Part shown: positions 6,144 through 42,086 of the stretch, piece by piece
Position numbering within the stretch: position 1 is the stretch's first letter
How the letters are laid out: each line of letters begins with the position of its first letter
Assembly: GCA_014898415.1 (NCBI GenBank)
Contig: RCTD01000013.1
Span: forward strand, 1,240,001 to 1,304,000
DNA from: Stromatinia cepivora
Lineage: Eukaryota; Ascomycota; Leotiomycetes; Helotiales; Sclerotiniaceae
DNA: 64,000 nt
Reading direction: 5' to 3'
The notes under the pieces: model-generated
What the model saw: the letters and a program-made list of their open reading frames with translations, nothing else
Told to the model about the DNA's origin: nothing
Databases searched by the model: none
Made by a program: the position numbers and the translations under genes

Positions 6144-6205
6144 AATCAACTGCCCTACTTTCGGGCCACCCTTGTTTCGGACCACTTTTTCATACCAAAA
6201 ATCTC
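6144..6205 (+). repeat. Left terminal inverted repeat of the TIR element
   Basis: This TIR of about 60 bp matches 42033-42086 in reverse complement. It contains two tandem TTTCGGRCCAC blocks that could be transposase-binding sites (inference). Confidence 0.8.
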
Positions 6206-6889
6206 GAAAATCTATATTTTTAACTTTCTTATTTATGAATATAATTTCTTGAAATTTTGATTATAGATTTATTATATGTATAATAATAAATTTTAGCAAT
6301 TTCAGATTTTTCGCAATTTTTTTCGTCAAGATATTGGAGATTGAATTTTCGATTTATATATGATTTATATACAAATTTAAAAAATATGAAAATCTTGAAT
6401 AATCTTTCAATAAAAAATATTAAAAATAAATTATAAATTTTTATCGAATTCTTAAGTTTTATTATTGACAAAAAATCTAATTTTTGAATTTTAAAAATTA
6501 TAAATAAAACTTTATTTACAATTTTCGATTTTTTTGAGATTAAAAAATTGAAGATTTCTAAAAAAATAAAAAATTTCTATAAGTTATTAATTAAGATAAA
6601 TAGATTTTTTAGATTATAATATTTTCAAATATTCTATGAAAATTTATAGTTTATTTTTAAAAAAATTTGTTGAAAAGTTATTCAAGATTTTTATCAAAAA
6701 ATTATTTTGTATATAAAATATATATAAATTCAAAATTTGAAAATTCAATTTTCAATAACTTTTTATTGATGATTTACAAAATTCTGAAAATTTCAAAACT
6801 TTATATCTATATAAAGAATTAATATTTCAAATTTTAAAAAATAATATTGAATACTGATGGAGTTATTAATAGGTTAAAATGACCGATTT

Positions 6890-7056
6890 TGTTGGAAATG
6901 AGGCTATCATAGGATTAGAATTGAGGTCACATGATCATAATGGTGTATAGATCATATTTGGGGATAACCTCAATTCTACTTCTACTAGAAATATAGATCC
7001 TTAGTTCAAATCTATATAATCAATAATATTATTACTTCCTATACCAAAAGTTAACA
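6890..7056 (+). repeat. 5' LTR of Copia-1
   Basis: 167 bp, TGTTGGAAATG...GTTAACA; preceded by GATTT. Confidence 0.93.
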
Positions 7057-7086
7057 GATTATAAAATCCAATTGCACAATAGTAAC

Positions 7087-7368
7087 TGTCACGAATCGTG
7101 AACCACAGGAGGCTAACCACGTGATACCTCTTATCTCTCATATCAATTTATGAGCTGATCATCTGTATGTATGCGTTACGAATCATACGATTTAGTATGG
7201 TAAAATGATAACCCTAATAACGCTTATATACAACCCTGCAACCCACAAATAGGTATTTATATATATATATCTAATCGTTCTTTACAAGCTATAGTTCTTC
7301 AATTGTAGATTCTAAAGAACATAATTGATCCTATTTATTCAGCTCTACTACGGCTTTTGTGTGTTACA
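7087..7368 (+). repeat. 5' LTR of Gypsy-B
   Basis: 282 bp; starts TGTCACGAATCGTGA and ends GTGTGTTACA. It is less mutated than the 3' LTR at its start. Confidence 0.93.
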
Positions 7369-7860
7369 TTATCTACAATTCATTTACAAACGTTTAACCA
7401 TTTGATGGCCTCCCAAATAATACTTCACTTTAATAATACCTTTTTAAATGAACTTTTACAAACGTTATATCCAAAAAAAGAAGATCTATTTCGATCTAAT
7501 CGATAAAGATATAAATATTTTTAAAAATGTATTATCATTTTTATAATACAACGAACTTCTTTTCCTATATACTTCGAATCTTCGAAAATATATTCTGAGG
7601 AATCCTTTCCTTCTTTTTAATTATTTCAATAACCCTTCGAAGAAAATATGAATACAGGATTGGATAATATTATTATTGAAAGAAAGAAGATTAATAAAAA
7701 GAAAATTCTAGTATATAAAATTAATACTTTTAGCAATTCAATTACTCCTTTTGAATTATTATTACAATTATAAGATTTCTATATAATAATTATAAATTTG
7801 AAAGAGGAGAATCGATAATTAAAAACTATAATGATAATGAGCTTTACTGTTGGAAATAAG

Positions 7861-9535
7861 TGTGACGAACCCAACGAGCGTTTAGAGATCAACCTTAGAA
7901 TTAAAAGCTACAGAGCTAAAGAGAGTATGCTACAAAGCTATATATATGATCGGCTCGGAGCTTAATACCGTACTAGCCCGATCGTACGTGATCACATATA
8001 TCTCGTAATACTACCCCCCCCTTTTGAAAAATTCGCCTCAAATTCATTTTAAATGAATAACTTAAGTACAAAATGATCACTAATCTTCTTTTAATAAAAA
8101 TTCCTGATATACAGATTGTATCACAGCCAACGAATATGTATCCATCATACCATTTGCTTTTTCCAAGCGATCTTCAAAATATCGATTATTAATTATTTCT
8201 TTTAGATCTTTATCATCATTATTTTCGAACTCAATAATCAATATAATAACCGGAATAGACTTTTATTGATCTCGAATTCCTTGATACAGATCTAACGGAC
8301 AAACTTGTATCCAATAAGAATTACTTTTATATTGTATATATTTATTTTGTTTATACAAAAGAGTTCTTTCAAAAAGAGAAAACTCGGATACTTATATATA
8401 GAGTAGAATCAAAGTACAATTGGGTTTATCCAATTGAGTATCAAAAGGGTTAAAAGTATCAATAACATTAAGGTTGCTAATATCCATTGGATTGTAATTC
8501 CGAAAGTGGGATAGATTCTGCAATATATATAAGGCTCTAAATTCACTAGAATAAAATGATACAAGGAATTCATTCGCTATATAAGCAGTTAGTTGTTATA
8601 TAACCTAAACAAAGTCGGGATAAAAGCAAAGAAGAGAAAGCTATTGAAAAAAACGATTTCTAAAAATAACATTAAGTCCATTACGAAAAGTTAAGATTTT
8701 ATTCGAATCAGGCCAATTCTGACCTTTAGCTTTATAAAGGATCCTTTCGAATTTTGCAATATAGATATATAAAGAATCGATTCCTTATTTGAAAATAAAT
8801 AACTTATCTTCAACTTCTTGAATTTTATTCGGATTGTTGTAAATGTATATAAATTGATCCAGGATCATTGTATAATCTAAAAAAACATTTTGATCAAAAG
8901 AAGAAAGCTGAAATAGTACTATAATTTATATATAAGATTCGAAATTGAAATAAACATAATAAAATTGAATTATAGAATTGCCGATCGTAGTGCCATCTAC
9001 TTGTAGTTTCATTCGAATCGAAGAAAACCAGATATCGAATTTTTGAAAACTATTACTGAATTTTTCAGGATCAAAGAAAGAGGATTTCGGACAAAAAGGA
9101 GTATGAATAATTGGAATATATTCGAGAATTAGGGAACGTAGAAACGAGATTTCATCCTACTGACAAATCACTTCGTCACAAAGTTCTATAATCATAAGGT
9201 TTATCGAATTGTAATTTATAACTTAGAAATTAAGGATAAAAAAAAAGACAATATTTTCGAATAATATCAAGAAGATTTATATACAAACAAAAAAGCATAA
9301 GTATATATCTAAACAAAAACAAACGGAGTATATATGAGCATATACAAATATTATTCTATTTTTTATTTGAAAGAGCTTTTAATAATATAACGAACCCAAT
9401 AAGCATTTAGAGATCAACCTTAGAATTAAAAGCTATAAAGTTAAAGAGAGTATACTACAAAGTTATATATATAATCGGCTCGGAGCTTAGTACTGTACTA
9501 ACCCGATCGTACGCGATCACGTGTATCTCGTGACA
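7861..9535 (-). mobile_element. C-1: gag-only LTR element, inside the Copia-2 LTR
   Basis: The 150-bp LTRs lie at 7861-8010 and 9386-9535. The element reads on the minus strand (right LTR is 5'). The duplication ATAAG occurs at 7856-7860 and 9536-9540. The length is 1675 bp. A C-tract at 8013-8019 beside the left LTR is the complement of the polypurine tract. The interior is colinear, in reverse, with C-2 and holds a mutated Gypsy-type gag but no protease, RT or integrase. It is the youngest insertion in the nest. Confidence 0.9.
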
Positions 9536-9540
9536 ATAAG

Positions 9541-9693
9541 GCCATCATAAGATTAGAATTGAGGTCACAAGACCACAATAGTGTATAGACCATATTTAGG
9601 GATAACTTCAATTCTACTTATATTAGAATTATAAATCCTTAATTCAACCTATATAATCAACAATACTACTACTTCCTATACCAAAAGTTAACA
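9541..9693 (+). repeat. 5' LTR of Copia-2, distal part
   Basis: The rest of the 5' LTR, after the first 13 bp at 7848-7860 that lie beyond element C-1. The ATAAG at 9536-9540 is the duplicated target. Confidence 0.92.
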
Positions 9694-10156
9694 AATTATA
9701 AAATCTAATTGCACAGTAGTAACTAGAAAGCAAAGCAAATCGAGAAAGGATTAATATAACTAATAGAAATGGAATAAAGTGAAAATCAGAGTTTTTATAT
9801 AGTATTACCAAAGCAAAGTTGAAATACAACAATACAGCTTATAATTCACAATATCATAGATCAAAGCGGAGAACAATCTGTATAATGCCGATACAGAATT
9901 ATAGTAGAGGCGAAGAGCAAGCTCGCACAGCTACAAGAAAACACATTACAATACAATCTTACAAATTCTTTTATTGTTTTATTTTTATATTTCTTTATTA
10001 TTTTGAATTTATTTGCTGTATACTTTTTTTAAGATTATCTTAAAAATCTGAAGATTATCTTCGATATCTATCAAATAACAAGAAATCTTTACAATATCGG
10101 AATCAAACAATCCTTCGAAGTTCGATCAAAATAATTATAAACGATGATTCAAACAA

Positions 10157-13100
10157 ATGAAGATACAATTAAGAAGGAAAGAATGGTTTTATATAATTGA
10201 TCAAATATTAAACGAATATATGCAGATTGCAGGATCCAATATAGTATTTGCTTATAAGATTAATGGTCGTGTATATTATAATGTCGAATTGAAATCGGAA
10301 TATTTAAAGAACGAAGCGAATGTATTATTGTATATTTGTATAACACTCAATAATAATGATGAAATCCTTACCGACGAATATTCAACAATATATATATTCT
10401 GGAAATATTTTAAATCAAAATATACCAGAGTTAGTATAGTTACAATTAATATGTATATAACGATGATCTAGAATTTCAAATTCCAATCCAATATCTATCC
10501 CAATATAACCATTATCGAAGCTTGGGATAAATTGAAAGAGTATAGAAGGAAACTAGAAGTTGCAAACGAAAGTTATTGATTAGTATATCAAGATATTATT
10601 CTGTTTTTGGTTTTAATATATAATCTTTTAATTGATTATCAAGGAATAATAGATATATTAGATATCCAAATCAATCTTAATATCAACAATAAGATCAAAT
10701 ATTTACAAATTAAAGAACTTCGTCTTAAAGATAGATCAGAATTAGCATAAATTGTAAAAGAATCTAAATACATTTCTTGACGCTAAAAATTAGATTTCGA
10801 AACTCCAAACAATATTTGTAATCTATATCAAAGGGAAAATCATTATATATAAGACTATCTATATTTAATATAAACCAATAAACTCCTTTACAATTATTTT
10901 TGTTACCAAAGGAAAAGAAGATTATCAAATCTAAAAAAGATTTATTTCAACAAAAAAGATTAAATATATTTTATTAACAATATCTCTGAATCAGATTCCG
11001 ATATTGAAGATATAATAAAAAAAGATTACAATTTGATAAAAAAAACCATTAATAAGACTTTCTTTAACAAATAGTATATCGATATAAATGTTTCTTTATA
11101 TATATCTAATCAACCTTTATTATTCAAATCAATAGAATTTATTACTAAATAAAGAATAAAAATTAATAAAAAAATAATATATTATTGTTATTAAAATTTA
11201 ATAAATATAATATACAAAGATAATTCTAAGATACTATTTTCAAATATATTATATATACCAGAACTAAAAGTAAATTTATTATTAAAAAAAAGGATCTGCA
11301 AAACAAAATTACAAAGAGAATTCAACTCTTATTATATATATTTCAAAAAGAACAATAAGAAAGTTATCTATATTAGAATATAAGATAGAATATATATGAT
11401 TTTATATATGACCAAAGAATATAAAGATACAACTTTCTGTTCTAATATATATCAAAATGATCAAAAAAAAGGCTTCTCTTCAAAGATAATTGATAATATT
11501 AAAAATATCGATAACGAATTAATATTTAAGGAGAAAAAGAGATATCTATTATAATATCGAAGATTCAATTATCTAGATTTAAACAAGATTAAGAATTTAT
11601 ATAAGATATCTAATATAATTAAACCAATATAGATCCTAATTGAATTAGATATCTATAAAGTATATATATTCATCAAGATAACCAATCATATTCCGAAGTA
11701 ATTGAGTTTGTACAAATCAAAGAGATTCGAACTTATATATTTCGATATTGTAGAATCATTCTCAAAATCGATTCGAAAGAATCGTTATTTCATATTGATC
11801 ATTGATAATTGTATAAGAGTAAATTGGATTATATCATTTAAACAAAAAGATAATACAATTCAAATATTGAAAATTTGAAAAAAGGAGATAGAATTAACTA
11901 CTGAAGAAAAGATCATTACAATTAGAACTAACAATATATCGGAATTCCTACAAACTATTCGTGAATAATCATTAAGTACACGATCCGAAATTACAACAAT
12001 TGTTTCTTTATATCAAAACGGATTTGCAAAACAGAATATAAGGATTACAAAAACAAATATAAAAGCAATACTAAAAGAAACTGGATTACCATTAGAATTT
12101 TGAGACGAAGCTGTAGAACATGATATTTATATCAGAAATCGTATTAGTATTGGTTCTAATATAAATGAAATAGATCAATTCTTTATAGAAGCTTTTACAA
12201 ATATAATATTAGATATAGAAATATACAAAATCTAAAAGAGCAAATGTTACACTTATATCAATCCCAAGATTATTCCAAAAGGGCAGAGATATGATAAATT
12301 GCAGAATATTTCGAGAATCAATATATTTCTAAAGTATTCAAAAATTACGAATAAATATATTAAAGTATATTTTTTAAAATTAGATTATATATTTCGATTA
12401 AATAAAGTAATTATAAATGAATTTCATCAAAAAGAAAATTTGGATCTTAAATTAAGAAATTATGAATCAAATTTATAAGGAACAAAGAATATAAAATTAG
12501 ATCGAAAACCTTATAATAGATCAACAACAAATAAGGCATTTTTTCCATCTTCAATATCAAATGTGATACTTGTATCACTTTCGTTTCAAGTATTCTCTTC
12601 AACAGATATTATACCGAGTTCAATAATTGTATCAAGTATCCCAATTGTTGAATTGAAATCAGATAAATTAGATATATCAATATTAATATATGATAAAGAT
12701 AAAAATAATAATATCCAGAAAACAAATCAAGAATTTTCTTTTAAGGATATTTCAGATATCGAATTCATCATTTCAAAAGATCCAATCCAAGAATCAATTT
12801 CTGCAAACTCTGAATCTATATTAGAAGCAAAATTTAAAACCGTTTTAAATTTTGCTGATAAGTTTATTTCAGCAAAATCAAAAAGCGAAGTAAATCTATA
12901 ATCATTTGAAATCGAGCAAAAGGATGAAATGGATCTTGAAAACGAATCCTTAAAGTATTTAATACGAAAACGGAAAAGAGATATGAAACAAGATCCTAAA
13001 GAAAAACAGGAAAATAAGATTATAAGAGTATTGATTACAATATCTATATAGACCAAAATTTAAAAAAGTATAAAATACATTATAATTACAATCCCAATTA

Positions 13101-14810
13101 TTTACAAAATGGACCCTTATATCAAAGATAAGATCATTTCAGATTTCATAACTTTATTGATAGATACAAATAATACAAAAGGTATAATATATCTGGTCGA
13201 AGAAGTTCTAGGAATCAAAATACCAAGAACTTATAAGAAAGCAATATCAGATCAAAAATACTTTGAAAAATGGAAGGAAGTTATCCAAAAGGAAATCATA
13301 TCTTTAATTCAAAATAATACTTGGGAAAAATATATATTTTCTAAAGGAAGTAATTTAGTTTCAATAAAATAGATATTTACAATTAAGATTAAAAATAACA
13401 AAATAGAATAATTCAAAACAAAATTAATAACTCAAAGATTCAATCAAATACTAAAAAAGGATTACAACGAAATATTTATATCAACAATAAAATTAAATAT
13501 ATTCAGATTATTCCTAACTATTATCACAAAAGAAAATTTGAAATACTTACATTTCAATATCAAAAACGCTTTTATCGAATCATATTTGAAGAAAGAGATC
13601 TATTTCGAATTACCCTAAAATATCAAAATCAAAAAGGGATATATATTATAAACTCTACAAAGCCTATATAGATTAAAGCAAACTGAAAAGAACTAAAATT
13701 TATTATTAAAGAAAAAGCTTTTAGATATAAATTTTATACAAAATTTAGCGGATTTATATCTATATATATTCAAAGATCATAATATAATATTACTAATATA
13801 TATCAACGATATCATTATTACATCATATATATCATTACAAATCATTTGGTTCGATGAAAAGCTATCAATCCGTTTTAATATCAAAAATCTAAAGAAGATT
13901 AGTAAAATCCTAAATGTTAAAATCATTCGCAATAAAAAAGTATATATATTAATTATAAATTAAGAAGAATATTTCAACATTATACTAACCAAATACAATA
14001 TTATATATAAACAATATCAAATTAAGAAACTATCAATAATAAATTATATTTATTTCCAACCAGCAATTGATGATAATAAACTAATAGATATAAACAAATA
14101 TCAATAACAAATAGGAAATATAATTTATCCAATAATATACATCCGATCAAATATAGTATTCTCAATTGAAAGATTTTCACAATTTATAACAAAACCAACA
14201 AAATATCATATTATAGCTTTGAAGAATCTAATATGATATCTACAATCAATAATCAAATAGAAGTTATAATTCAGGTCAAAAGAAATATAATTTAATATTT
14301 ATAAAGAATATAATATATTTAATAATATAATAAAAGTATATACAAATACAGATTGAATTAATGATAAACATAATCGGAAAAGTGTTTCAAAAGGAATTGT
14401 AATATTTTATAGAGGTTCTATATTGTAGGCTAATAAGAAACAAATATTTATAGCTATTTTTAATATAGAATCAGAATATATTACAATAGTAATGTTTACT
14501 AAACAAGGGAAATGGATTGTATAAATATTTAAAGATCTATTTAAATCAAATTACATTGAAAAGAATAGAGATATAGTTCAAATACTTGATAATAATCAAA
14601 ACGTTTTAATTTTAATCAAGAATCTATATTTATATGAACGATCCAAATATATAGATATCAATTATTATTTTATCAAAGATTTAATAGAAAAAAAGAAAAT
14701 CGTTATTAGTTATATTAATATATATAATATAATTGTTAACAGAATAATGAAGTCTTGTACAAAGATTGCTTTCGAAAAATTCAAGAAAATATTAGGATTA
14801 ATAATCTAAA
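10157..14810 (+). pseudogene. Copia-2 gag-pol
   Basis: Broken polyprotein in the Ty1/Copia order. Gag is 10157-10870, with a degenerate CCHC knuckle near 10820-10860. The protease/pre-integrase region is about 11150-11650. Integrase is about 11700-12420, with a D-containing IIDN segment and a late C-terminal part recognisable by its NRxSI and KCY motifs. A linker rich in Ser/Asp/Glu follows at 12480-13060. RT is 13109-14270, where the catalytic YVDD box reads YIND because of mutation. RNase H ends near 14810. Integrase precedes RT, which separates it from Gypsy. Stops occur every few dozen codons, many at former Trp or Gln codons, as RIP would produce. Confidence 0.85.
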
Positions 14811-14841
14811 AAAATCAAATAGGATATCCTTAATAAAGGAG

Positions 14842-15007
14842 TATTGGAAATAAGATCATTATAGAATTAAAATTGAGGTTACAAAACTATAATAATACAT
14901 AGACTATATTTGGGGATAACCTCAATTCTATTTCTACTAGAATTATAAATCCTTAGTTCAACCTACATAGTCAACAATACTACTACTTCCTGCACCAAAA
15001 GTTAACA
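14842..15007 (+). repeat. 3' LTR of Copia-2
   Basis: 166 bp; starts TATTGGAAATAAG, ends GTTAACA, followed by TTTAC. Confidence 0.92.
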
Positions 15008-15530
15008 TTTACAATAATACAATTTTCTTCTGAACTCTAAATGATGTCTATATAGATATCCAAATCAACAATAGTATCTGGGATTCTTCTTATTTCTTTA
15101 ATCGAAATTTAAGGATCTTTATTCAAGCAAATCTGAAGATCCCAAAATCAAAGAAAGAAAACTTTGATCAAACGATTTGATTATCCAAGGTCTTTTAAGG
15201 ATTCTCCTTTCCTTTTAAGAAATAACGATTTATTTAATAATCAGGGATCCCTTTACTCAAAAAATCGATCTAATTGATCAAGATTATATTCCTGTATTAA
15301 TTACAATTTGTAATAAAATATATATATATCAAAATCTACAAATCTTATTATTAAATTTAACAATAGTATTGAATTTAAAGTTAATTTGTGGTAATTATTG
15401 ATTATAGAACGATTCGAACTGTATACTATATTATTTAAAAGTGAAATGCAATATTGTATATATATAATCGATTAAATCGAATTGGAAGTATAAACATATT
15501 ATTATGCTTTTTATGTACAAATGCCCCGAC

Positions 15531-16250
15531 TCACAATACTCGAATTGATCGAACAGTTTGTAGCGATCTATCGGAACCCGGTCGAAATCGATGATATTCG
15601 TTTTCAATATGAAATGTGGATTATGCCTAATACAATTCGATATAGCAATTTCCTAGAATGATATAGGAAATTCAGATTACTTATTATCCAAATGGAGATT
15701 ATCAACAATAAAGTTCTATTTAGGAATCTCGAATAAAAGATTTCCGATTTTCTCTTATAAATAGTAACAATACCTATTAAGGATTATAAAACTACAAAAG
15801 AATTTATAAATATATTTACTAGAATAAATCAAAACGAAATTTCATTACAAGAACGAAATCGATATTGTATTAATCGAAAAGCTTTTATAACTATTCGCAA
15901 ACTAACAATTACTACAAACCCTTTGCAACCCTTTTGAAACTCTAACAACTTCAATTTTGGAACCTTTATATTCCCGAAACTATTTCCACTCCGGAATATC
16001 CTTCTTGAATATACCGGCCTTGCTATATCCAATAATTATTCAAACTTCAAATGCTCATCGCCCTTTCTTTCTTTTAAAACAATATATACATTGACGCTTT
16101 GTATCAATAATTTCAATGAGATCGAGATAATACAAAAAGAAACAGAAGAATTCGAAGAATATCAGGATACCAAAGAAAACTTTAACTTAAAAGTTACAAT
16201 GGAAACTATATAGAATACTTGTTTAGAAAAAGAAAAGCATTTAAAATCAA
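15531..16250 (+). pseudogene. Gypsy-B gag
   Basis: A frame starting MPRLTILELI at 15531 reads through a gag-like helical region with several stops (the first near 15658). It lies directly upstream of the protease region and downstream of the 5' leader, the expected place for gag. Assignment rests on position and general resemblance. Confidence 0.55.
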
Positions 16251-17537
16251 ATATTTAAATTCTATCTCTATTCTAAACACTATATAGGATATAAGATTTC
16301 TTGATTTAACTAAACTTATAGAAGGAGAAGTATTTATTTTTTCTTATAATCTTTCGAAAAATAATTATATTTATCGATTAAAAGCATTTATTGATTTTAA
16401 AGCAAATGGATTTGTTTTTATTAATACTATACTCTTTATTTGTTTATTTCCTATATTTAAATCTAGAATTATATTGTTTGAAGTTTCAATTAAAGTTAAA
16501 GGATATAATGGTATACAAGGCTATACCATTACCTATTTCACATTCCTTAATTTAATGGTCAATGATTATAAACAATCTTTTGTCCTTTTCTTTATTATTG
16601 AATTAAGGAGTTATAATATTATTTTAGATAGATTTTGGTTATCAAAGATTCGAATGAAGTTTGATTGCTTTAATAGATATTTTGAATGATCTAAAGAGAG
16701 ATTCTATATCATCTCCTATTCGAATAATCTTCTTGTTATTTAATTATTCCTTTGCAAATAGAAAATCGATCGATTAATTTAACAAGATACTGATCGACAA
16801 AATGATCAGTTCGAAGAATATTAGAATCGAAGAAATTCACAATTGAATAGATCAATCACAATTGGTGATATACAACAAGAACCTTCAAATATAAATATAA
16901 TATAGACTTTTATTGAAAAGGAAGAGGTTTTGATTCTTTTCAAATTCAATCCATCTCTTTTTCAATTAATTATATTACTATTGTAAATCTACAAATGCCT
17001 TCTCTATATATCGTCCGAAGTCCTCGATCTATATATATTTAAATCCGATAAATTCCAATTAAAATGTAAGAGAGATGAACAAATTGAACTTTTTATTATT
17101 ACTTTGAAAAAACTTAATGATGTAATAGACTTTCGATAGAATGAATAATATACGGAAAAGAGAATACTGATTGCCTTAATCGAATTCAAGAATACAAAAG
17201 TTCGAGAGAAATTCGATCGAATATTAATCGAAATCGATTCAGAATTTAAAATATCATTTGAATATCGATAATATTATCAAACCTTTTCCAAGTATAAATC
17301 AAATATTTTGTCTTCTAACTAATCTTATAATTATAAAATCATATTGAAAGATGAAGAAGAACAAGTTTTGCGTTACAATCCGTTTTACAAAATATTCCTA
17401 AAACAATTAAAAATCATTAAAGAATATATTATAAATAATTTTAGCAAAAATTTCATTGAATTCAATTAAACCCTTTATACTGTACTCATTCTATTCATTA
17501 AGAAACCCAATAATAATTTGAGGTTCTATATAGACTT

Positions 17538-22600: not shown

Positions 22601-22700
22601 TAAAGCTCATAAACCTTCACAAAACCTAATTTCCGATGAAATAGTAATGAAATAGAGGAGTGAAATGCTTAAAGACGAGCTTTTCCGAAGGGGAAGATAG

Positions 22701-31500: not shown

Positions 31501-33424
31501 TTTTAATTTACAAGATATAAATAATAGAATTATAAAATTTGAATAACGATGATTATAGAATTTGAATAACGATAATCTGGAGTTCATATTTCTTCCCTTT
31601 GATATAAATAAAATGAATCCTATTTGGTATTCCAGATTATTATATTTTTCTATAATGCACTCCAATTTGTGTATTCTATATTCATCGAGAAACAAAGAAC
31701 AATCAAGACCGATCATTTCTCCGTTCTTCATTTTCCTATCCTCGAAGAAGGATAAATTTCTTTTTAAGTTTAATAACTTAAAATTTAAATAAAAAAACTT
31801 CTGGATTATCTACAACAATCAAGGAACAAGGAATAATTGGAGCAATCAAAGTTATTGATGTTATTGGTATTATAGAAACTAAGGGATTATCCCTTCTTTC
31901 CCTTTTTTTTTGAATATACCATTTACTCTTTCCTTCTTTTCTTTTCTATTATTCTTTCTTTCTTATCTTCATTATTGCTTTCCGAAATTACAATATATTT
32001 CTTTCGCTCGGCTTTTCGAGGATTCCAATGAATAATACGGTGAGGAGAGGGGGAACGATAATGCAGAGGCGAAAGAACAATTTCTTTTTTCTCCTCGATC
32101 TCCAATATTACCTTTATCGTAATTCTGTATTCCTGTTTGGATTATACAATTAATAATCAGTATATTATAAAGGTAGGGGGTAAACGAAGAACTTATTTTC
32201 GAATTTTGCTGATAAATGATAATATAATAATTTGTTAGAGGATAAAGGAAAGTTGGTAAGGGAGCATACGGATAAGTACTACAATTCCAATACCGACGAT
32301 TATTCGGCTTAAAAAAATCAACAAAGTATTCATCGTAGAAATTATATCTCCCAACGATCAACGATTTCATATATCGAATATATAAATGATCATTCCTTTC
32401 TCTACGATTCCTTTTATCTTTTGTTTTGGCTGGAGAGCCAACAACTTTCGATAATCTTTTTTCTTTTTCTTCTTTATTTAATTCATCATCCGAAAAACCT
32501 GGCGTCGAAGGATCGAATAGATCATCATCATCAGATAAGAAACATTCCCTCTTTTCTTTTCTTTATCGAATGATCTTTACTTCGATAATTACAAATATAG
32601 GATTAATAAAATCTTTCAATTATATAATAGGATTCAAAAATGAAATCTACCTTCAAATTATTACCTGAACTTATAATTAGCAATTGATCATGACAAACAA
32701 CAATTCCTTCAACAGGGGGGAGCAATTTCTGAAATAGATGATAATATGTTATTCTAGAAACAGATTTAATTAAATTATATTTCCAAAGATCAATATCTTG
32801 GTTCGTTATTTATATTAAATTCATTAATTCTTTTTACTCGATTTATTGATCCTTCAAAGGAATACTAAGATCTTCTTTTGTATTCGATTTTCTCAAAACT
32901 TTTTTCTCAATCATCATTTGCTTAGTACAATTGAGATTCGTTTGTTTAGCTTTCTTAAACCCCAAAATCTTAAGTATGATAATAATCAATAAAAGCTTGA
33001 TTGAGATAAAAACGAGAATATGAAAAGGGGATCTATATACCTTTTAAAAATTCATTTATTTTACTTTGCTATTGCGATCAATACACTATAGTTTAACAAT
33101 TATATACATTCTCAATTGCTATGTTGTAGAATCAATCAATCATCTGTATTCTTTTGACGGAAAACTTTCTTTTTATTATTCAAAATCTTGATTTTGAAGA
33201 ATATCGCAGGTAGCAAGCTAAAGATTAAGAGAAATTTGTGATTTATATATATTCAAATTCTTCTCTATTCTAAAGGTACCAGGATCATTTCAGGTTTATA
33301 TGTTACATCAATCCTTGGTTGATATCTGTCTATAATCGTCTTGTATATTCATTCACAAATCATATGAATTGCCATTTTCTATACTTTTCCATTTATTTCA
33401 GATCGCCTTCCGATCTGAAAGGTG
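31500..33424. other. Extra 1.9-kb 3' region of Copia-D
   Basis: No retrotransposon domain is seen between the end of RNase H and the 3' LTR. A direct repeat of about 20 bp (GAATTTGAATAACGATRAT) occurs at about 31540-31575. The minus strand holds a 132-codon frame (31972-32370) and the plus strand short frames at 31562-31792 and 32426-32668, none recognised. The base composition is slightly richer in G+C than the pol region around 31.9-32.5 kb. Confidence 0.5.
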
Positions 33425-33733
33425 TATCATAGAAAGCCCTGCAATCCCCTGTATCTTATGAAGGATCAAAGTGTATATTTTCCAATCGGAATGAAGGATC
33501 TACTAGTCTTTATCAATCCATTAATTGATAAAATGATCCTGATATATTAATAAACAAAGATCTAATCTAATTAAGGTGTATATCGGCTAGATAACCATTC
33601 ATTTGTTCTATATATACAGCTTTTGATTCATATAATCAAGGGCAAGTCATTCAATTCTTTTACTCTACCAATCACGTGTACCACCTATTCAACGATCCCT
33701 GAAAGTGCTGTGTAATCATACTATCCCGTGATA
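33425..33733 (+). repeat. 3' LTR of Copia-D
   Basis: 309 bp; the start is mutated to TATCATAG. It is followed by AATAC. Confidence 0.93.
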
Positions 33734-33738
33734 AATAC

Positions 33739-35052
33739 AATATCAAATATAAAGATATACAAAATCTAGGGAAGCAAATATTACATTTATATTAATCCCA
33801 AGATTATTCCGAAAAAGCAAAGATATAATAAATTACAGAACATTTCGAGAATTAGTATATTTTTAGGATACTCAAAAGTTATGAATAAATATATCAAAAT
33901 ATATTCTCCAAAACTAAACTATATATTTTGATTAAATAAAATAATTATAAATGAATTTCATCGAAAAAGAGATTTGGATCTTAAATTAAGAAATTATAAA
34001 TCAGATTTATAAGGAACAAAGAATATAAAACCAGATCGAAGATTTTATAATAGACCAACAATAAATAAGGCATCTTTTCCATTTTCAATATTAAATACGA
34101 TATCTATATCACTTTCGTTCCAAGTATTCTCCCCAATAGATATTATACCGAGTTTAATAATTATATCAAGTATTTTAATTATCGAATTGAAATCAGATAA
34201 ATTAGATATATTAATATTAATATACAATGAAGATAAAGATGGCAATATCCAGAAGATAAATCAAGAATTTTCTTTCAAGGATATTTCAGATATCGAGTCT
34301 ATCATTCCAAAGGTTCCAATCTAAAAGTTAATTTCTGTAAACCCTGAATCTGTATTGAAAGCAAAATTTAAGATTATTTTAAATTTTGTTGATAAATTTA
34401 TTTCAATAAAATCAAAAAGCGAAATAAATCTATAATCATTTGAGATTAAACAAAAGGATATAATAAATTTTGAAAATGAACCCTCAAGATATCTAATACG
34501 AAAATGGAAAAAAGATATAGAATAAAATCTTGAAGAAAAACAGGAAAGCAAAATTATAAAAGTATTAATTACAATATTTATATAGACCAAAATTCAAGAA
34601 AGTATAGAATACATTATGATTATAATTCTAATTATTTACAAAATGGATTTTTATATCAAAGATAAGATCATTTCAGATTTTATGATTTCGTTGATAGATA
34701 TAAATAATATAAAAGATATAATATATCCAGCCAAAGAAATTCTGGGAATCAAAATACCAAAAACTTATAAGAAAATAATATCAGATCGAGAATATTCTGA
34801 AAAATAAAAGGAAGTTATTTAAAAGGAAATCATATCTTTGATTCAAAATAGTATTTGAGAAGAATATATATTCCCTAAAGAAAGTAATCTAATTTCAACG
34901 AAATAAATATTTATAATTAAGATTAAGAATAATAAGGTAAAATAATTCAAAATAAAATTAGTAATTCGAAGGTTCAATTAAATATTAAGAAAAGATTACA
35001 ATAAAATATTTATATTAACAATAAAGTTAAATATATTCAGATTATTCCTAAC
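33739..35052 (+). pseudogene. Copia-1 integrase C-terminus to start of RT
   Basis: Colinear with Copia-2 about 12215-13515; bounded by Copia-D on the left and Copia-3 on the right. It includes the acidic linker (34045-34600, open on the opposite strand by chance) and the front of RT (34616-34807 open). Confidence 0.8.
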
Positions 35053-35218
35053 TGTTAACTTTTGGTGCAGGAAGTAGTAGTATTGTTGATTATGTAGGTT
35101 GAACTAAGGATTTATAATTCTAGTAGGAGTAGAATTGAGGTTATCCCCAAATATGGTCTGTACACCATTGTGGTCTTGTAACCTCAATTCTAATCCTATG
35201 ATGGCCTCATTTCCAATA
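35053..35218 (-). repeat. 3' LTR of Copia-3
   Basis: 166 bp; on the + strand it starts TGTTAACTTTTGGTG and ends TTCCAATA. The adjacent CTCCCCTATT (35219-35228) is the complement of the polypurine tract. Confidence 0.93.
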
Positions 35219-35250
35219 CTCCCCTATTGAGGATATTCTATTTGATCCTC

Positions 35251-38200
35251 CTAGACTACTAATCCTAACATTTTTTTGAACCTTTTGAAAGCAATTTTTA
35301 TATAAGACTTCATCATTCCATCGACAACCATATCGTATATATTGATATAATTAATAGCGATTTTCTTTTTTTCTATCAAATCCCTAATGAAATGATAATT
35401 GATATTTATATGTTTGAATCGTTTATACAAATATAGATTCTTGGTTAAAACTAAAGCGCCTTGATTATCACCGAACATTTGAACCATATTTTTATTCTTT
35501 CCAATGTAACTTGATCTGAATAAGTCTTTGAATATTTATACAACCCATCTCCCTTGTTTAATGAACATTGCCATCACAATATATTCTGATTCTATACTAA
35601 AGATAACCACAGATACTTGTTTCTTGCTAGCCTACAATATAGGGCCTCTATAGAATATCACAACTCCCCCTAAAACACTTTTCTGATCATATTTGTTACT
35701 AATCTAATCTGCATCTGTATATACCTTTATTATATTATCAGATATATTGTATTCTTTGTAGATATCAGATTATACTCCTTTTGATCCGAATTATAACTTT
35801 TGTTTGATTATTAATCATAAATATCGCATCAGATTCTTCAAAGCTATAATAAAATGTTTTGTTGGTTTTATTATAAATTGTGAAAGTCTTTCAATTGAGA
35901 ATGCTATATCTGGTCGAGTATATACTATTGAATGAATTATACTTCTTATTCGTTGTTGATATTCGTTTATATTTGTTAGTTCATCGTTATCGGTTGCTGG
36001 CCGGAGATAGGTATAATCCATTATTGGTAATTTCTTGGTTTGATATTATCTATATGTAATATTATATTTGGTTAGTATAATATCGAGATATTCTTTTTGA
36101 TTTATAATTAATATATATACTTTTCTATTACAAATAATTCTAACATTTAGGATCTTATTAATCTCCTTTAGATTTTTGGTATTAAAATAGATTGATAGCT
36201 TTTCATCGAATCAAGTGATTTATGATGATGTATATGATACAATAACGATATTGTCGATATATACTAGTAATATTATATTACAATCTTTGAATATATATAG
36301 ATATAAATTTGCTAAATTTTGTACAAAATCTATATCTAAAAGCTTTTTCTTCAATAGTAAACTCCAATCCCTTCCAGTTTGCTTCAATTTATATAAACTT
36401 TGTAGAGCTTGTAGTACATATCCTTTTTTGATTTTGATACTTTAGAATAATTTAAAGTAGATTTCTTTCTTCAAATACGATTTGATAAAAACATTTTTGA
36501 TATCGAAATATAAGTATTCCAAATTTTCCTTTGCAACGATAACTAGGAATAGTTTAAATGTATTTAACTTTATTGTTGATATAAACATTTTGTTGTAATC
36601 CTTTTTTAATACCTAACTGAACCTTCGAATCATTAATCTTGCTTTAAATCGTTCTACTTTATTATCCTTGATCTTAATTATAAATATCCATTTTGTCAAA
36701 ACCAGATTACTTTCTTTAAGGAGTATATATTCTTTCTAAATATTATTTTGAATTAAAGATATGATTTCCTTTTGGATAGTTTTTTTTCATTTTTCAGAAT
36801 ATTCTTGATCCGATATTGTTTCTTTATAAATTCTTAATATTTTGATTTCTAGAATTTCTTTGGCCGGATATACTATACCTTTTATATTATTTGTATCTAT
36901 CAATGAAATTATAAAATCTGAAACAATCTTGTTTTTAATATAAAGATCCATCTTATAAATAATTGGGATTATAATTATAATATATTCTACATTTTCTTGA
37001 GTTTTGATCTATATAGATATTGTAATCAATGCCTTTATAATCTTGCTTTCCCATTCTTCTTCAGAATCTTATTCTATATCTCTTTTCCATTTTTGTGTTA
37101 GATACCTTAAAGATTCGTCTTCAAGATTTATTTCATTTTTTTGTTCGATCTTAAATAATTATGAATTTACTTTGTTTTTTGATTCTATTGAAATAAACTT
37201 ATCAATAAAATTTAAAATAATCTTAAATTTTGCTTCTAATACAGATTTAGAGTTTACAGAAATTGATTCTTGAATTGAACCCTTTGAAATAATAGATTCG
37301 ATATCTGAAATATCTTTGAAAAAAGATTCTTGATTTGTTTTCTGGATATTGTCATCTTTATTTTCATTATATATTAATATTGATATATCTAATTTACCTA
37401 ATCTCAATTCGATAATTGAGGTGCTTAATACAATCATTAAACTTGGTATAATATCTATTGAAGAGAATATTTGAAACGAAGGTGATACAGATATCATATT
37501 TAATATTAAAAATAGAGAAAGTGCTTTGTTTGTTACTGGTTTATTACAAGGTTTTCGATTTAACTTTACATTCTTTGTTCTTTGTAAACCTGATTCACAA
37601 TTTCTTAATTTAAGATCCAAATCTCCTCCTCAATGAGATTCATCTATGATTATTCTGCTTAATCGAAATATATAACCTAATTCTGAAGAATATATTTTGA
37701 TATATTTGTTCGTAACTTTTGAATACCTTAGGAATACACCGATTCTCAAAGTATCCCGCAATTTATTGTATCTCTGCCTTTTCGGAATAGTCTTGGAATT
37801 GATATAAATATAACATTTGCTCCTCCAGACTTTATATATCTTTATATCTGGTACTGTATTTGTAAAAGCTTTTATAAAAGATCGATCTATTTTATTCATA
37901 TCAGGATCAATACTAATACAATTCTTAATATAAGTATTATACTCTACAACTTCGTCCCAAAATTCTAATGGTAATCTAGTTTCTTTTAGTATTACTTTCA
38001 TATCTGTTTCTACAATCCTTATATTCCATTCTATGGGTTCGTTTTGATATAAAAAGGAAATTGTTATAACTTCGGATTGTATACCCGATAACCATTCACG
38101 AATAGCTTATAGGAATTCTGGTATGTTGTTAATTCTAACTACAATGATCTTTTCTTTAATAATTAATTCCATTTTCTTTTTTTAAATTTTCAATGTTTGA

Positions 38201-39900
38201 ATTGTATCGTTTTTTTATTTAAATAGTATAATCCAATTTACTTTTGTACAATTGTTAATAATCAATATAAAATAACAATTCCCTTAAATCGATTTTGGGA
38301 ATAATCTTGCAATATCGAAATATATAAATTCGAGTCTCTTTGATTTGTGCAGATTCAATTGCTTCGGAATATAATTGATCATTTTAATGAGTATATACAC
38401 TTCGCAGATATCTAATTCAATTGGGATCTTTATCGGTTTAATTATATTGGATACTTTATGTAAATTCTTAATCTTATCTGGATCTAGATAATTGAATCTT
38501 CGATGTTATAACAGGTATCTCTCTTTCTCCTTAAATATTAATTCGTTATCGATACCTTTGATATTATCGATTATTTTTGAAGAGAAGCCTTTTTCCTGAT
38601 CATTTTGATATATATTAGAATAGAGAACTGTATTCTTATATCCTTTGGTTATATATAAAATCATGTATATTCCATTTTATATTCTAGTATAGATAACTTT
38701 CTTATTATCTTTTTTGAAATATATATAATAAAAGTTGAATTCCTTTTGCAACCCTGTTTCGCAGATCCTCTTTCCTGATAGCAAGTTTACTCCTAGCCTT
38801 GGTACATATAATATATTTGAAAGTAGTATCTTAGAATTATCTTTATATACTATATCCACTAAACCCCAATAGCGATAATATATCATTCTCCTATCAATCT
38901 TTATCCTTCGTTTAGTAATAGATTCTATTGATCTGAATAATAAAGGTTGATCAGATATATATAAAGAAATATCTATATCAGTATATCATTTATTAAAGAA
39001 AACCTTATTAATAATTTCCTTTATTAAATTACAATCTTCCTTTATCATATCTTTAATATCAGAATCTGATTCAAAGATATTGTTAGCAGGGTATACTTGA
39101 TCTTTCTTATTGAAATAAATCTTCTTTGGATTTAATAATCCCCTTTTCCTTTGGTAATAAAGGTAATTATAAAGGAGTTTGCTGGTTTATATTAAATATA
39201 GGCAGTCTCGTATATAATAATCTTCCTTTTGATATAGATCGCAAGCATTGTTTGAGATCTCGAAATCTAATTCTTGGTGTTGAAAAATATATTTAGATCT
39301 TTTTGCAATTTATACTAACTCTAATCCATCCTTAAAATGAAGTTCTTTAATCTATAAATACTTAATTTTATTATCGATACTAAAACTGATTTGGATATCC
39401 AATATATCCATTACTCCTTAATAATCGATTGAAAGATTATATATTAAAATCAAGAATAAAGCAATATCTTAATATACTAACCAATAACTTTCATTTACAA
39501 CTCCTAATTTCTTTTTATACTTTTTCAATTTGTCCCAAATTTTGATAATAATTATATCGGAATAGATATTGAATTGAAATTTGAAGTTCTGGATTATCGT
39601 TATATATATATTAACTGTAACTGTACTAACTCTGGTATATTTTGATTTAAGATATCTCCAAAATATATATACTGTTGAATATTTGTTGATAAAGGCTTCA
39701 TCGTTATTATTGAATATTATACAAATATACAATAATATATTCGCTTTATCCTTTAAATATTCCAATTTTAATTCAACATTGTAATATATACGACCATTGA
39801 TCTCATAGACAAATGCTATATTGGATCCTATAATCTACGTATATTCGTTTAATATTTGATCAATTATATAAAACTATCCTTTCCCTTTCAATTGTATCTT
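35251..39900 (-). pseudogene. Copia-3 gag-pol
   Basis: Reads right to left. Gag is about 39890-39250. The protease region is 38886-38677 (SNILYVPRLGVNLLS is typical of Copia protease ends). The integrase C-terminal part is 38001-37630 (123 codons open, with LPLEFWDE and KCYIYI motifs). The acidic linker is 37620-37159. RT is about 36960-35815, with a TRPDIAFSIERLSQF segment at 35815-36021. RNase H is 35487-35251, with DNQGA. There are fewer stops than in Copia-1 and Copia-2, but it is still broken in every domain. Confidence 0.87.
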
Positions 39901-40354
39901 CGTTTGTTTGAATTATTGTTTATGATTATTTTGATCGAATTTCGAAGAATTGTTTAATTCCGATATTATAAAGGTTTCTTATTATTTGATGGATATCAAA
40001 AATAATCTTCAGATTTTTAAGACAATCTTAAAAAAGAATATACAGCAAATAAATTCAAAATAATAAAGAAATATAAAAATAAAACAATAAAAGAATTCGT
40101 AAAATTATATTATAATATATTTTCTTATAATTATACAAACTTGCTCTTCGTCTTTACTATAATTCTATATCGGTATTGTATAGACTGCTTTCTGTTTTGG
40201 TCTATGATATTATAAGTTATAAACTGTATTATTATATTTCAATTCTGTTTCGATAATATTATATGAAAATTCTGATTTTCACTCTATTCCACCCCTACTA
40301 ACTATACTAATCCTTTCTCGATTTGCTTTGCTTTTTAATCATTACTATACAACC

Positions 40355-40367
40355 GGATCTTATAACC
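40355..40367 (-). other. Probable primer-binding site of family A (Copia-3 copy)
   Basis: On the minus strand the bases after the LTR read GGTTATAAGATCC. The same site is mutated in Copia-1 (7057-7069) and Copia-2 (9694-9706). The string resembles the complement of a Met-tRNA anticodon arm (loop CTCATAA) with one G-to-A change. Confidence 0.4.
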
Positions 40368-40533
40368 TGTTAATTTTTGGTATAGGAAATAATAGTATTA
40401 TTGATTATATAAATTGAATTAAGGATTTATAATTCTAATAGAAATAGAATTAAGGTTATCCCCAAATATGGTTTGTGCATTATTGTGGTCTTGTGACCTC
40501 AATTCTAATCCTATGATGGCCTCATTTCCAACA
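40368..40533 (-). repeat. 5' LTR of Copia-3
   Basis: 166 bp; on the + strand it starts TGTTAATTTTTGG and ends TTTCCAACA. Confidence 0.93.
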
Positions 40534-40538
40534 CTAAC

Positions 40539-41850
40539 TATTATTGTAAAGGAAAATTTGGAATGTTTATATTTCGATATCAAAAATGTCTTTACTGAAT
40601 CGTATTTGAAAGAAAAGATTTACTTCGAACCATCCTAAAATATCAAAATCGAAAAGAGATATATACTACAAGTCCTACAAAGTTTATATAATTTGAAATA
40701 AATTGAAAGAGATTGAAATTTATTATTGAAGAAAGAGCTTTTAGATATAAACTTTATACAAAGTTTAGCAGATCTATATCTATATATATCTAAAAATCAT
40801 AATATAATATTACTGGTATATATCGACGATATTATTATTGTATTATATATATTATTGCAAATCATTTGGTTCGATAAAAAGCTATCAATTTGTTTTAATA
40901 CTAAGAATCTAGGGGAGATTAGTAAGATCCTAAATGTTAAGATCATTTGTGATAGAAAAATGTATACATTAATTATGGATTAAAAAAATATCTTGATATT
41001 ATATTAACCAAATATAATATTATATATAAATAATACTAAACCAAGAAACTATTAATAATGGATTATACTTATTTCCGGTTAGTAATCGATAATAATGAAT
41101 TAATAAATATAAACGAATATCAATAACGAATAAGAAGTGTAATTCATTTAATAGTATATATTTGATTAGATATAGCATTCTCAATTAAAAGATTTTCATA
41201 ATTTATAGTAAAATCAACAAAACATTATATTATAATTTTGAAGAATCTAATATGATATTTATAATCAATAATCAAATAAAAGTTATAATTCAGGTTAAAG
41301 GGAGTACAATTTGATATCTACAAAGAATATAATATATCTGATAATATAATAAAAGTATATATAGATGTAGATTGGATTAATAACAAATATGACCGGAAAA
41401 GTGTTTTAGGGGGAATTATGATATTCTATAAAGGCCTTATATTGTAGACTAACAAAAAACAAGTGTCTGTGGTTATCTCCAATACAGAATTAGAATATAT
41501 TGCAATAACAATATTTATCAAACAAAGGAAATGGATTATATAAATGTTTAAAGATCTATTCAGATTAAATTATATTGGAAAGAATAGAGATACAATTTAA
41601 ATGTTTGATGATAATTAGGGTGCTTTAGCTTTAACCAAAAACCTATGTTTATACGAATGATTTAAATATATAAATATTAGTTATTACTTTATTAAGGATT
41701 TGATAGAAAAAGAGAAAATCGTTATTAATTATATCAATATATATAATATAATTGCCGACGGAATGATAAAGTTTTGTATAAGGATTGCTTTCGAAAGGTT
41801 TAAGAAAATGTTAGGATTAATAATTTAAAAGGATCGAATAAAATATCCTC
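40539..41850 (+). pseudogene. Copia-1 RT and RNase H
   Basis: Colinear with Copia-2 about 13520-14820. The RT catalytic box reads YIDD in the open stretch 40726-40983 (LLVYIDDIII), so it is better preserved here than in Copia-2. RNase H follows up to the polypurine tract before the 3' LTR at 41861. Confidence 0.85.
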
Positions 41851-41860
41851 AATAGAGGAA

Positions 41861-42027
41861 TATTGGAAATAAAACCATTATAGGATTAGAATTGAAATCA
41901 TGTAATTATAATGATATATAGATTATATTTGGGGATAATCTCAATTCTATTCCTATTAGAAATATAGATCCTTAATTCAAACCTACATAGTCAACAATAC
42001 TACTACTTCCTGCACCAAAAGTTAACA
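41861..42027 (+). repeat. 3' LTR of Copia-1
   Basis: 167 bp. Its first bases are mutated to TATTGG. It is followed by the GATTT duplication at 42028-42032 and preceded by a purine tract (AATAGAGGAA) acting as the polypurine tract. Confidence 0.93.
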
Positions 42028-42032
42028 GATTT

Positions 42033-42086
42033 TGATATAAAAGGGTGGCCCGAAACAGGGGTGGCCCGAAAGTAGGGTAGTTGACT
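42033..42086 (-). repeat. Right terminal inverted repeat of the TIR element
   Basis: This is the mirror copy of 6144-6205 with two GGGTGGCCCGAAA blocks. Copia-1 inserted at its inner edge, so only the outer 54 bp lie to the right of the retrotransposon. Confidence 0.8.

What the first reader, a model, noticed from the sequence alone, without database searches (positions are those of the whole stretch)
6144..42086. A seven-insertion nested transposon stack that can be read exactly
Every layer has paired termini and an exact 5-bp (or TA) target duplication: GATTT, GTAAC, TTTAC, ATAAG, GACTT, AATAC, CTAAC. Removing the inner layers gives three Copia-A copies of 5479, 5480 and 5481 bp and one Gypsy-B of 7052 bp, a check the model could easily have failed. 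The order is TIR element, Copia-1, then Gypsy-B / Copia-D / Copia-3, then Copia-2 and C-2 inside Gypsy-B, then C-1 inside Copia-2.
Basis: seen in the sequence. Interest (0 to 1): 0.75.

Follow-up and report, generated by a model that had tools for sequence, protein, structure and literature searches.

The report
Mutated nested transposon stack in fungus
A 36-kb block of transposons that jumped into one another in an ascomycete fungus is real and readable exactly as claimed, and its scars show that a RIP-like repeat-mutating process wore down outer layers before later ones landed, with an unusual taste for cytosines that follow an A rather than those that precede one.

Summary
Observation confirmed to the base: a TA-flanked TIR element holding seven LTR insertions, each with an exact 5-bp duplication; net lengths 5479/5480/5481/7052; Copia-1 and Copia-2 pieces abut on Copia-3. 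Nested LTR stacks are ordinary. Copies differ almost only by C-to-T transitions (Copia-2 vs Copia-3, 914:4). Three features go beyond the ordinary. (1) Mutation depends on the 5' neighbour (ApC .62 > GpC .52 > CpC .41 > TpC .33) and little on the 3' one, so CpA-based RIP indices fail. (2) In C elements it falls to 2-6% within 40 bp of the outer ends, while inner LTR ends of the same sequence are hit. (3) That dip is absent where later insertions split Copia-1 and Gypsy-B (72 of 161 sites mutated, 71.3 expected), so these were mutated before being hit. Best reading: a RIP-like, homology-delimited process with a 5' rule; a RID-like DNMT gene is present. Host probably helotialean; species unknown.

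The parts
6144..42086 (.). Outer TIR element (net 800 bp), TA duplicated at 6142-6143 and 42087-42088; split by Copia-1
   Evidence: Ends and TA; 63-bp terminal inverted repeat at 86%; 80 matches from 40 scored candidates in the genome, many on both strands of the same place
6890..42027 (+). Copia-1, duplication GATTT; pieces 6890-7086, 22988-25466, 33739-35052, 40539-42027
7087..22982 (+). Gypsy-B, duplication GTAAC; pieces 7087-7847, 15013-17537, 19217-22982
   Evidence: Integrase_H2C2 hit at 20355-20705, E 1.5e-4, below the curated cut-off
7848..15007 (+). Copia-2, duplication TTTAC; pieces 7848-7860 and 9541-15007
7861..9535 (+). C-1, 1675-bp short LTR element in the Copia-2 LTR, duplication ATAAG
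17538..19211 (-). C-2, 1674-bp copy of C in Gypsy-B, duplication GACTT
25467..33733 (+). Copia-D, 8267 bp, duplication AATAC, LTR about 303-310 bp, last bases TA
   Evidence: a 54-aa piece at window 30121 matches the Copia-2 RT region, E 1.2e-4
35053..40533 (-). Copia-3, uninterrupted 5481-bp copy, duplication CTAAC
   Evidence: Pol_BBD, SH3_retrovirus and RVT_2 pieces
25427..25466 (+). Last 40 bp of Copia-1 left of Copia-D: no drop in mutation at the break
   Evidence: 9 of 18 C/G columns mutated, 8.6 expected
7808..7847 (+). Last 40 bp of Gypsy-B left of Copia-2: no drop in mutation at the break
   Evidence: 7 of 16 mutated, 7.1 expected

Best explanation
The block is a natural nested insertion stack in AT-rich DNA of an ascomycete. 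After an element inserted, a RIP-like process recognised it by homology to its other copies. It converted some 40-45% of its cytosines to thymine, in strand-coherent tracts, mostly sparing the last ~40 bp at each end where homology stops. The mutated copy diverged enough to be left largely alone, and later elements inserted into it. The enzyme prefers C after A (then G) and is nearly blind to the base after C. SHOWN: order, duplications, transition-only divergence, 5' context, edge protection, no edge at the breaks of Copia-1 (by Copia-D and Copia-3) and of Gypsy-B (by Copia-2). INFERRED: homology pairing as the cause of the edges, the RID-like methyltransferase as the agent, sexual-cycle timing, loss of recognition after mutation, the same order for the remaining layers.
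For: Structure. Transitions only: Copia-2 vs Copia-3 914:4, C-1 vs C-2 273:2, seven LTR pairs 184:1 over 1351 sites; 32 Copia-A pieces 211:1 and 31 C elements 44:1, summed over pairs. Context: base -1 explains 24% (Copia-A) and 8% (C) of the between-site variance, 0 of 1000 permutations reach it; +1 explains 0.2% in Copia-A, 829 of 1000 permutations reach it; ApC exceeds TpC in 32 of 32 and 31 of 31 copies. Edges; same-sequence control, LTR positions 1-40 mutated alone in the outer LTR 10 times, in the inner 137 (31 C elements); in the window 7 of 7 elements, inner 106 vs outer 11. Strand coherence, small but steady: same-strand correlation +0.058, opposite -0.053 at 1-5 bp, decaying over several hundred bp, permuted null 0. 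Breaks: 72 of 161 C/G columns within 40 bp of five insertion points mutated, 71.3 expected from other copies. DNMT gene: PF00145 in an 881-aa frame at C20, nearest named relatives Botryotinia calthae 63% and Monilinia fructigena 59%.
Against: The canonical RIP mark (CpA) is not met. Base -1 is not the only position above chance: -2 and +2 in Copia-A (eta2 0.037, 0.035) and -4, -3, -2, +1 and +2 in C (0.035, 0.046, 0.048, 0.025, 0.093) are also reached by 0 of 1000 permutations, and in C base +2 exceeds -1 (0.093 vs 0.080; the C counts include the spared ends). Counted by each copy's own neighbours, a mild 3' preference appears (Copia-A: CpA .365, CpT .350, CpC .286, CpG .222), and in the Gypsy-B LTR pair GpC is not raised. 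The Gypsy-B break at C-2 is inconclusive (8 of 26 within 40 bp vs 10.2; 1 of 11 within 20 bp vs 3.7). The Copia-1 break at Gypsy-B lies in the taper of the element's own 5' end (8 of 29 vs 9.0). Copia-1, the oldest copy, is somewhat more mutated than the others (348 of 647 sites vs 289.9 expected, 288 of 554 vs 248.2, 316 of 636 vs 281.8), so 'once only' may be too simple. RIP elsewhere also reaches DNA next to repeats (PMC8254937 passage); here the ends are spared. Loci were picked as best matches to window copies. No cross, expression or methylation data.
Confidence: 0.82

Rival explanations
1. Slow deamination of methylated cytosine in heterochromatin, not a RIP-like pathway: DNA methylation covers the block, and C becomes T over long times.
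For: Five places with DNMT-family matches; almost every C/G column is hit in some copy (520 of 538 in Copia-A).
Against: 184 transitions to 1 transversion in LTR pairs leaves almost no time for ordinary mutation. Methylation should spread over ends, yet outer ends are spared while the same sequence inside is hit, also for C elements that lie in AT-rich DNA (flank GC 0.12-0.38; ends). Mutations run in strand-coherent tracts.
Confidence: 0.1
2. Editing of the cDNA during retrotransposition by an APOBEC-like deaminase, so that elements arrive already mutated.
For: C-to-T changes with a 5' context resemble a deaminase (recalled, no call). In several C elements G-to-A is about twice as frequent as C-to-T (for example .52 vs .20).
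Against: LTR pairs, identical at insertion, differ by transitions. Both C-to-T and G-to-A are present in every copy counted. No AID-type -2 preference within ApC in Copia-A (A .64, C .63, G .69, T .62). The ends of the TIR DNA element also differ by 7 transitions and 0 transversions.
Confidence: 0.04
3. Ordinary canonical CpA RIP, nearly saturated, so that CpA differences are no longer visible.
For: Other Helotiales show CpA RIP or positive RIP indices (H. fraxineus mean composite index 1.66, PMC8254937 passages; Phialocephala subalpina, PMC5148876 passages).
Against: CpA is not depleted: (CpA+TpG)/(ApC+GpT) is 1.02-1.81 and TpA/ApT 0.78-0.93 in the 13 segments of 197 bp or more. CpA sites are mutated to 0.47 in Copia-A, like CpC .45, CpG .45 and CpT .45, so nothing is saturated.
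Confidence: 0.06
4. Assembly artefact: repeats misjoined into a false nest.
For: The families are abundant (40 candidates scored in each search out of 170 to 754 first-look candidates), which makes misjoins possible.
Against: Exact duplications at all seven LTR insertions plus TA, and exact abutment of pieces. Spared outer ends are seen for the window's own elements (7 of 7), which random misjoins would not give.
Confidence: 0.02

Closest known systems
Repeat-induced point mutation (RIP) of Neurospora crassa
   Same: [quoted passage not shown] a RID-like DNMT gene is present here. Strand-coherence in N. crassa is recalled.
   Different: N. crassa RIP favours CpA (PMC12543289 introduction passage); here 5' ApC matters and CpA is not favoured. 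Timing and gene dependence not tested.
Relaxed or shifted RIP signatures: CpT beside CpA (Botrytis, Sclerotinia, Magnaporthe); GpC/TpC depletion in Sclerotiniaceae; no CpA decrease in Monacrosporium haptotylum
   Same: A CpT signature beside CpA (PMC4352252, abstract and passages). A 5' effect noted as GpC and lesser TpC depletion in Monilinia, citing Clutterbuck 2011 for Botrytis and Sclerotinia (PMC8959702 passage); GpC under-abundance in Anisogramma (PMC10998396 passage). CpA not decreased in M. haptotylum repeats (PMC3828140 passage).
   Different: Here ApC leads and TpC is least mutated. Monilinia still shows 'classical CpA->TpA' changes and Anisogramma CpA and CpT. None of the passages read reports ApC preference or spared outer ends.
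Nested LTR retrotransposon stacks in plant and fungal genomes (recalled)
   Same: Successive insertions with duplications give relative dates.
   Different: Here mutation scars also date the mutation of a layer relative to the next insertion.

Membership tests
RIP (repeat-induced point mutation) | Changes are C-to-T / G-to-A transitions | tested here: met
   914:4, 273:2, 184:1; 211:1 and 44:1
RIP (repeat-induced point mutation) | Mutation bounded by the ends of shared homology | tested here: met
   Outer ends spared, inner identical sequence hit; mutation in single-copy flanks was not testable without a relative
RIP (repeat-induced point mutation) | CpA preference (canonical form) | tested here: not met
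   Copia-A CpA .47, CpC .45, CpG .45, CpT .45; RIP indices negative in 13 of 13 segments of 197 bp or more at the RIPper cut-offs quoted in PMC7882544. Therefore filed as RIP-like, not canonical RIP
RIP (repeat-induced point mutation) | Strand-coherent mutation tracts | tested here: met
   Small same-strand positive and opposite-strand negative correlation
RIP (repeat-induced point mutation) | RID/Masc1-class DNMT gene | tested here: inconclusive
   PF00145 gene at C20, no Pfam domain (so no BAH) in the 599 aa upstream, nearest named relatives Botryotinia and Monilinia; no tree of DNMT classes made
RIP (repeat-induced point mutation) | Premeiotic timing, dependence on RID | not testable with these tools
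   Needs crosses and a deletion
Ty1/copia LTR retrotransposon (Copia-1, -2, -3) | TG..CA LTRs, 5-bp duplication, integrase before RVT_2 reverse transcriptase | tested here: met
   domains tested on Copia-3 only, minus strand: Pol_BBD 38985-38680, SH3 38106-37633, RVT_2 36441-36223; Copia-1 and -2 by collinearity
Ty1/copia LTR retrotransposon (Copia-D) | RVT_2 reverse transcriptase | tested here: inconclusive
   No Pfam hit; a 54-aa match to the Copia-2 RT region, 39%, E 1.2e-4
Ty3/gypsy LTR retrotransposon (Gypsy-B) | RT before integrase | tested here: inconclusive
   Integrase_H2C2 at 20355 below the curated cut-off, weak RVP_2 at 16288 (E 0.059); RT not confirmed by Pfam
Tc1/mariner-type TIR element | TIRs, TA duplication, transposase | tested here: inconclusive
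   TIR and TA met; the one 115-aa frame tested has no Pfam hit, so at most a non-autonomous relative

The most novel reading that the evidence does not exclude
This fungus has a RIP pathway whose target choice is set by the base 5' of the cytosine (ApC > GpC > CpC > TpC) instead of the base 3' of it. It leaves 40-150-bp spared ends where homology stops and works mainly on newcomers. Standard CpA-based indices score such genomes as RIP-free, and spared edges make a general clock: an edge dip at a nested break means the target was mutated after the hit, no dip means before.
Probability: 0.6. Interest if true: 0.68.

Novelty: new variant of a known kind. Interest (0 to 1): 0.52.

Why it matters
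The stack itself is ordinary. [quoted passage not shown] The spared ends give sequence-only evidence of where homology recognition stops. Together with nested breaks they let one ask, in any genome with nested repeats, whether silencing came before or after the next insertion. The usual LTR-divergence clock would date these insertions far too old: LTR pairs differ at 11-16% of sites, but by 1 transversion in 1351.

Tried and rejected
A plain MAFFT alignment of loci mixed orientations and gave false transversions; its context figures were discarded and replaced by reference-anchored alignment. The idea that exact duplications prove that old layers are immune to further mutation was dropped: duplications touch the spared ends, so they would stay exact anyway. 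Of 30 C elements 25 have exact duplications at the reported ends and 27 when ends may shift by up to 3 bases; 23 G:C positions, 0 mismatched; L058 has an A/T mismatch, L062 and L065 none. A related idea, that duplications preserve bases mutated before the hit, is weak: 3 of 6 examined carry a mutated-looking base on both sides that a sister copy lacks (Gypsy-B and Copia-3 in Copia-1, C-1 in Copia-2), but for C-1 the 3' LTR of Copia-2 has the same base, so Copia-2 may have arrived with it; the other three (Copia-D; Copia-2 and C-2) do not. An AID-like WRC motif was rejected (no -2 effect within ApC in Copia-A; in C, A and T are lower, not higher). The last 10 bp of Copia-A looked mutated (.298); one column, T in 25 and C in 3 copies, causes it, and the G and C there are intact in 29 of 29 and 23 of 23. 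Species naming failed: the RAI16-like search gave unnamed relatives at the top; the DNMT search points to Botryotinia and Monilinia as nearest named relatives. Ten literature searches showed, in listings and the passages opened, no paper on ApC preference or spared ends in RIP; only this open-licence library was searched, and two papers asked for were not held.
Full report
WHAT WAS CLAIMED AND WHAT IS THERE. The window lies in a 55.7-Mb, 48-contig genome (G000 C13:1240001-1304000). Neighbouring genes include an anillin-domain protein (52873-57018) and RAI16-like pieces (43497-46303). Between 6.1 and 42.1 kb GC falls to about 24% (2-kb windows 0.215-0.285) from 37% on the left and 43% on the right. 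Inside lie one TIR element and seven LTR insertions with exact ends and duplications. I did not excise and rejoin elements; each piece of Copia-1 and Copia-2 was aligned on its own to Copia-3, and the pieces tile it (1-191, 197-2678, 2681-3990 and 3993-5481 for Copia-1; 1-13 and 14-5481 for Copia-2). The few unaligned bases at the joins are equal in number on both sides, and gaps within pieces are 1-3 bp. Paralogues run unbroken through the insertion points of Copia-D and Copia-3, Copia-2, C-2 and Gypsy-B. The nesting order is therefore sound. Gypsy-B, Copia-D and Copia-3, all inside Copia-1, are not ordered by nesting.

ELEMENT IDENTITY. Copia-3 pieces hit Pol_BBD, SH3_retrovirus and RVT_2 in copia order, and its RT region is also among the 150 scored RVT_2 places of the genome. 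Copia-D rests on a 54-aa match to the Copia-2 RT region, Gypsy-B on an integrase zinc-finger piece below the curated cut-off. C is a 1675-bp LTR element; one stop-free frame of 76 aa was listed in C-1 and one of 89 aa in C-2 (minimum 70 aa), and I tested neither against families. In each family search 40 candidates were scored, out of 663 (Copia-A piece), 436 (C), 481 and 454 (Gypsy-B pieces), 754 (Copia-D LTR) and 170 (TIR) first-look candidates, so these are high-copy families and the counts are lower bounds.

THE MUTATIONS. Copia-A copies in the window are 82-86% identical but differ almost only by transitions: Copia-2 vs Copia-3 914:4; C-1 vs C-2 273:2; seven LTR pairs 184:1 over 1351 sites. 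Over 32 Copia-A pieces (30 genomic loci, of which one is Copia-3 itself, plus Copia-2 and a Copia-1 piece) the summed pairwise ratio is 211:1, over 31 C elements 44:1. In Copia-A 520 of 538 columns with C or G in two or more copies are C/T or A/G polymorphic. The 30 Copia-A pieces fetched have GC 0.195-0.288 and the 30 C elements 0.253-0.340; these are the best matches to an already mutated copy, so unmutated copies could be under-sampled. In the wider RVT_2 search 8 of 150 scored places have no stop inside, so copia relatives without stops in this domain exist in the genome.

CONTEXT. Base -1 rules: Copia-A ApC .646, GpC .554, CpC .401, TpC .329; C element .489.443.352.295; 0 of 1000 permutations reach either effect. 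Base +1 does nothing in Copia-A (829 of 1000 permutations reach it) and a little in C (eta2 0.025). With the ends left out and 31 Copia-A copies over about 3.6 kb: ApC .623 (367 sites), GpC .518 (267), CpC .410 (353), TpC .329 (525); within ApC the next base gives A .66, C .62, G .57, T .63. The same 5' A effect appears when each copy's own neighbours are used, without column labels: Copia-A .529 vs TpC .273, C .360 vs .227, Copia-D first 1.8 kb in 8 copies .461 vs .265. Against this, that count also shows a mild 3' preference (CpA about equal to CpT, above CpC, above CpG). Other positions are also reached by 0 of 1000 permutations (-2 and +2 in Copia-A with eta2 0.037 and 0.035; -4, -3, -2 and +2 in C, where +2 at 0.093 exceeds -1 at 0.080). 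The Gypsy-B LTR pair (few sites) shows A .417 but G .167. By the RIPper cut-offs (TpA/ApT over 1.15, substrate index at most 0.75, composite over 0; PMC7882544 passage) none of 13 segments of 197 bp or more is positive; by the older cut-offs (0.89 and 1.03, PMC4188875 passage) only the 761-bp Gypsy-B piece passes and C-1 sits on the line; the 54-bp TIR end is positive but too short to mean anything.

EDGES. In C, the mutated fraction is 0.02-0.06 in the bins up to 40 bp from the 5' end and 0.03-0.05 in the last 40 bp at the 3' end, 0.42-0.44 between 301 and 1520. Sequence composition cannot explain it: each LTR sequence occurs once outside and once inside. In 31 C elements LTR positions 1-40 are mutated alone in the outer (5') LTR 10 times, in the inner (3') LTR 137 times; positions 101-152 alone in the inner (5') LTR 180 times, in the outer (3') 16 times. 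In the window all seven LTR elements show the same polarity over first and last 60 bp together, inner 106 to outer 11 (Copia-3's first 60 bp alone is a tie, 2:2). Copia-A's outer 3' end shows it too (.02-.10 at 11-40 bp, plateau .44-.49). Mutations are weakly but steadily strand-coherent.

MUTATED BEFORE THE NEXT HIT. If a target were mutated after being split, its new ends should be spared too. Within 40 bp of the breaks: Copia-1 at Copia-D 18 of 36 (16.1 expected from other copies), Copia-1 at Copia-3 20 of 34 (18.1); Gypsy-B at Copia-2 18 of 36 (17.9), Copia-1 at Gypsy-B 8 of 29 (9.0), Gypsy-B at C-2 8 of 26 (10.2). Together 72 of 161, 71.3 expected; at a spared-edge rate of 0.06 the chance is about 4e-44 if sites were independent, while Copia-1's own outer end has 1 of 15. 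Three breaks are decisive, one lies in the element's own taper, one (C-2) is unclear (1 of 11 within 20 bp, 3.7 expected). Each insert's own LTRs, identical when it landed, differ almost only by this mutation, so each was mutated after landing. The history reads: Copia-1 in, mutated; Gypsy-B, Copia-D and Copia-3 in, mutated; Copia-2 and C-2 in, mutated; C-1 in, mutated. Shown for Copia-1 before Copia-D and Copia-3 and for Gypsy-B before Copia-2; not shown for Copia-2 before C-1, where the one suggestive base may be inherited. Copia-1 carries a somewhat higher load than other copies, so a little later mutation is not excluded.

MECHANISM AND LITERATURE. A homology-delimited, strand-coherent C-to-T process in a genome with a RID-like gene works like RIP. 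I file it as RIP-like because the canonical CpA mark was tested and is not met. Precedents: CpT with CpA in Botrytis, Sclerotinia and Magnaporthe (PMC4352252, abstract and passages); GpC and lesser TpC depletion in Monilinia, citing Clutterbuck 2011 (PMC8959702 passages); GpC under-abundance with CpA and CpT changes in Anisogramma (PMC10998396 passages); no CpA decrease in Monacrosporium haptotylum (PMC3828140 passages); CpA RIP or positive indices in other Helotiales (PMC8254937 and PMC5148876 passages). The 2025 survey states a shared CpA preference (PMC12543289, abstract, section 9 and passages). In N. crassa homology sensing integrates hundreds of base pairs (PMC4858203 abstract), in line with a taper of 150-300 bp. 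In the passages and searches listed I found no report of ApC preference or of spared outer ends.

VERDICT. Observation exact; stack ordinary in kind; the mutation context and edges make it a new variant worth a genome-wide follow-up.

Noticed in passing
window 3630-3795: About 14 tandem copies of a 12-bp AT-rich unit.
   Followed up: no
window 42100-43560: Strong strand asymmetry: GC skew -0.58 over 42001-44000, a C-rich strand right next to the AT-rich block.
   Followed up: no
window 5213-5537: A 139-bp direct duplication at 79% identity in the left flank.
   Followed up: no
G000 C32, C4, C20, C8, C24: Five places with DNMT-family (PF00145) matches; one of the C24 matches has stop codons inside, possibly introns or a damaged gene.
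   Followed up: partly
G000, RVT_2 search: 8 of 150 scored copia RT places have no stop inside, so copia relatives without stops in this domain exist despite heavy mutation elsewhere.
   Followed up: no
window 6144-6889: Many of the TIR element's genomic matches are found on both strands at the same places, so it is largely palindromic; an internal 64-bp inverted repeat lies within 6386-6694.
   Followed up: no
window 7861, 7087, 25467: Outer LTR ends of C, Gypsy-B and Copia-D look alike (TGTSACG ... CGTSAYA), perhaps shared integrase recognition.
   Followed up: no
L062 and L065: Two of 30 C elements show no target duplication, perhaps recombinants.
   Followed up: no
C element, base +2: Mutation is higher when base +2 is a pyrimidine (.46) than a purine (.29-.30), unexplained.
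   Followed up: no
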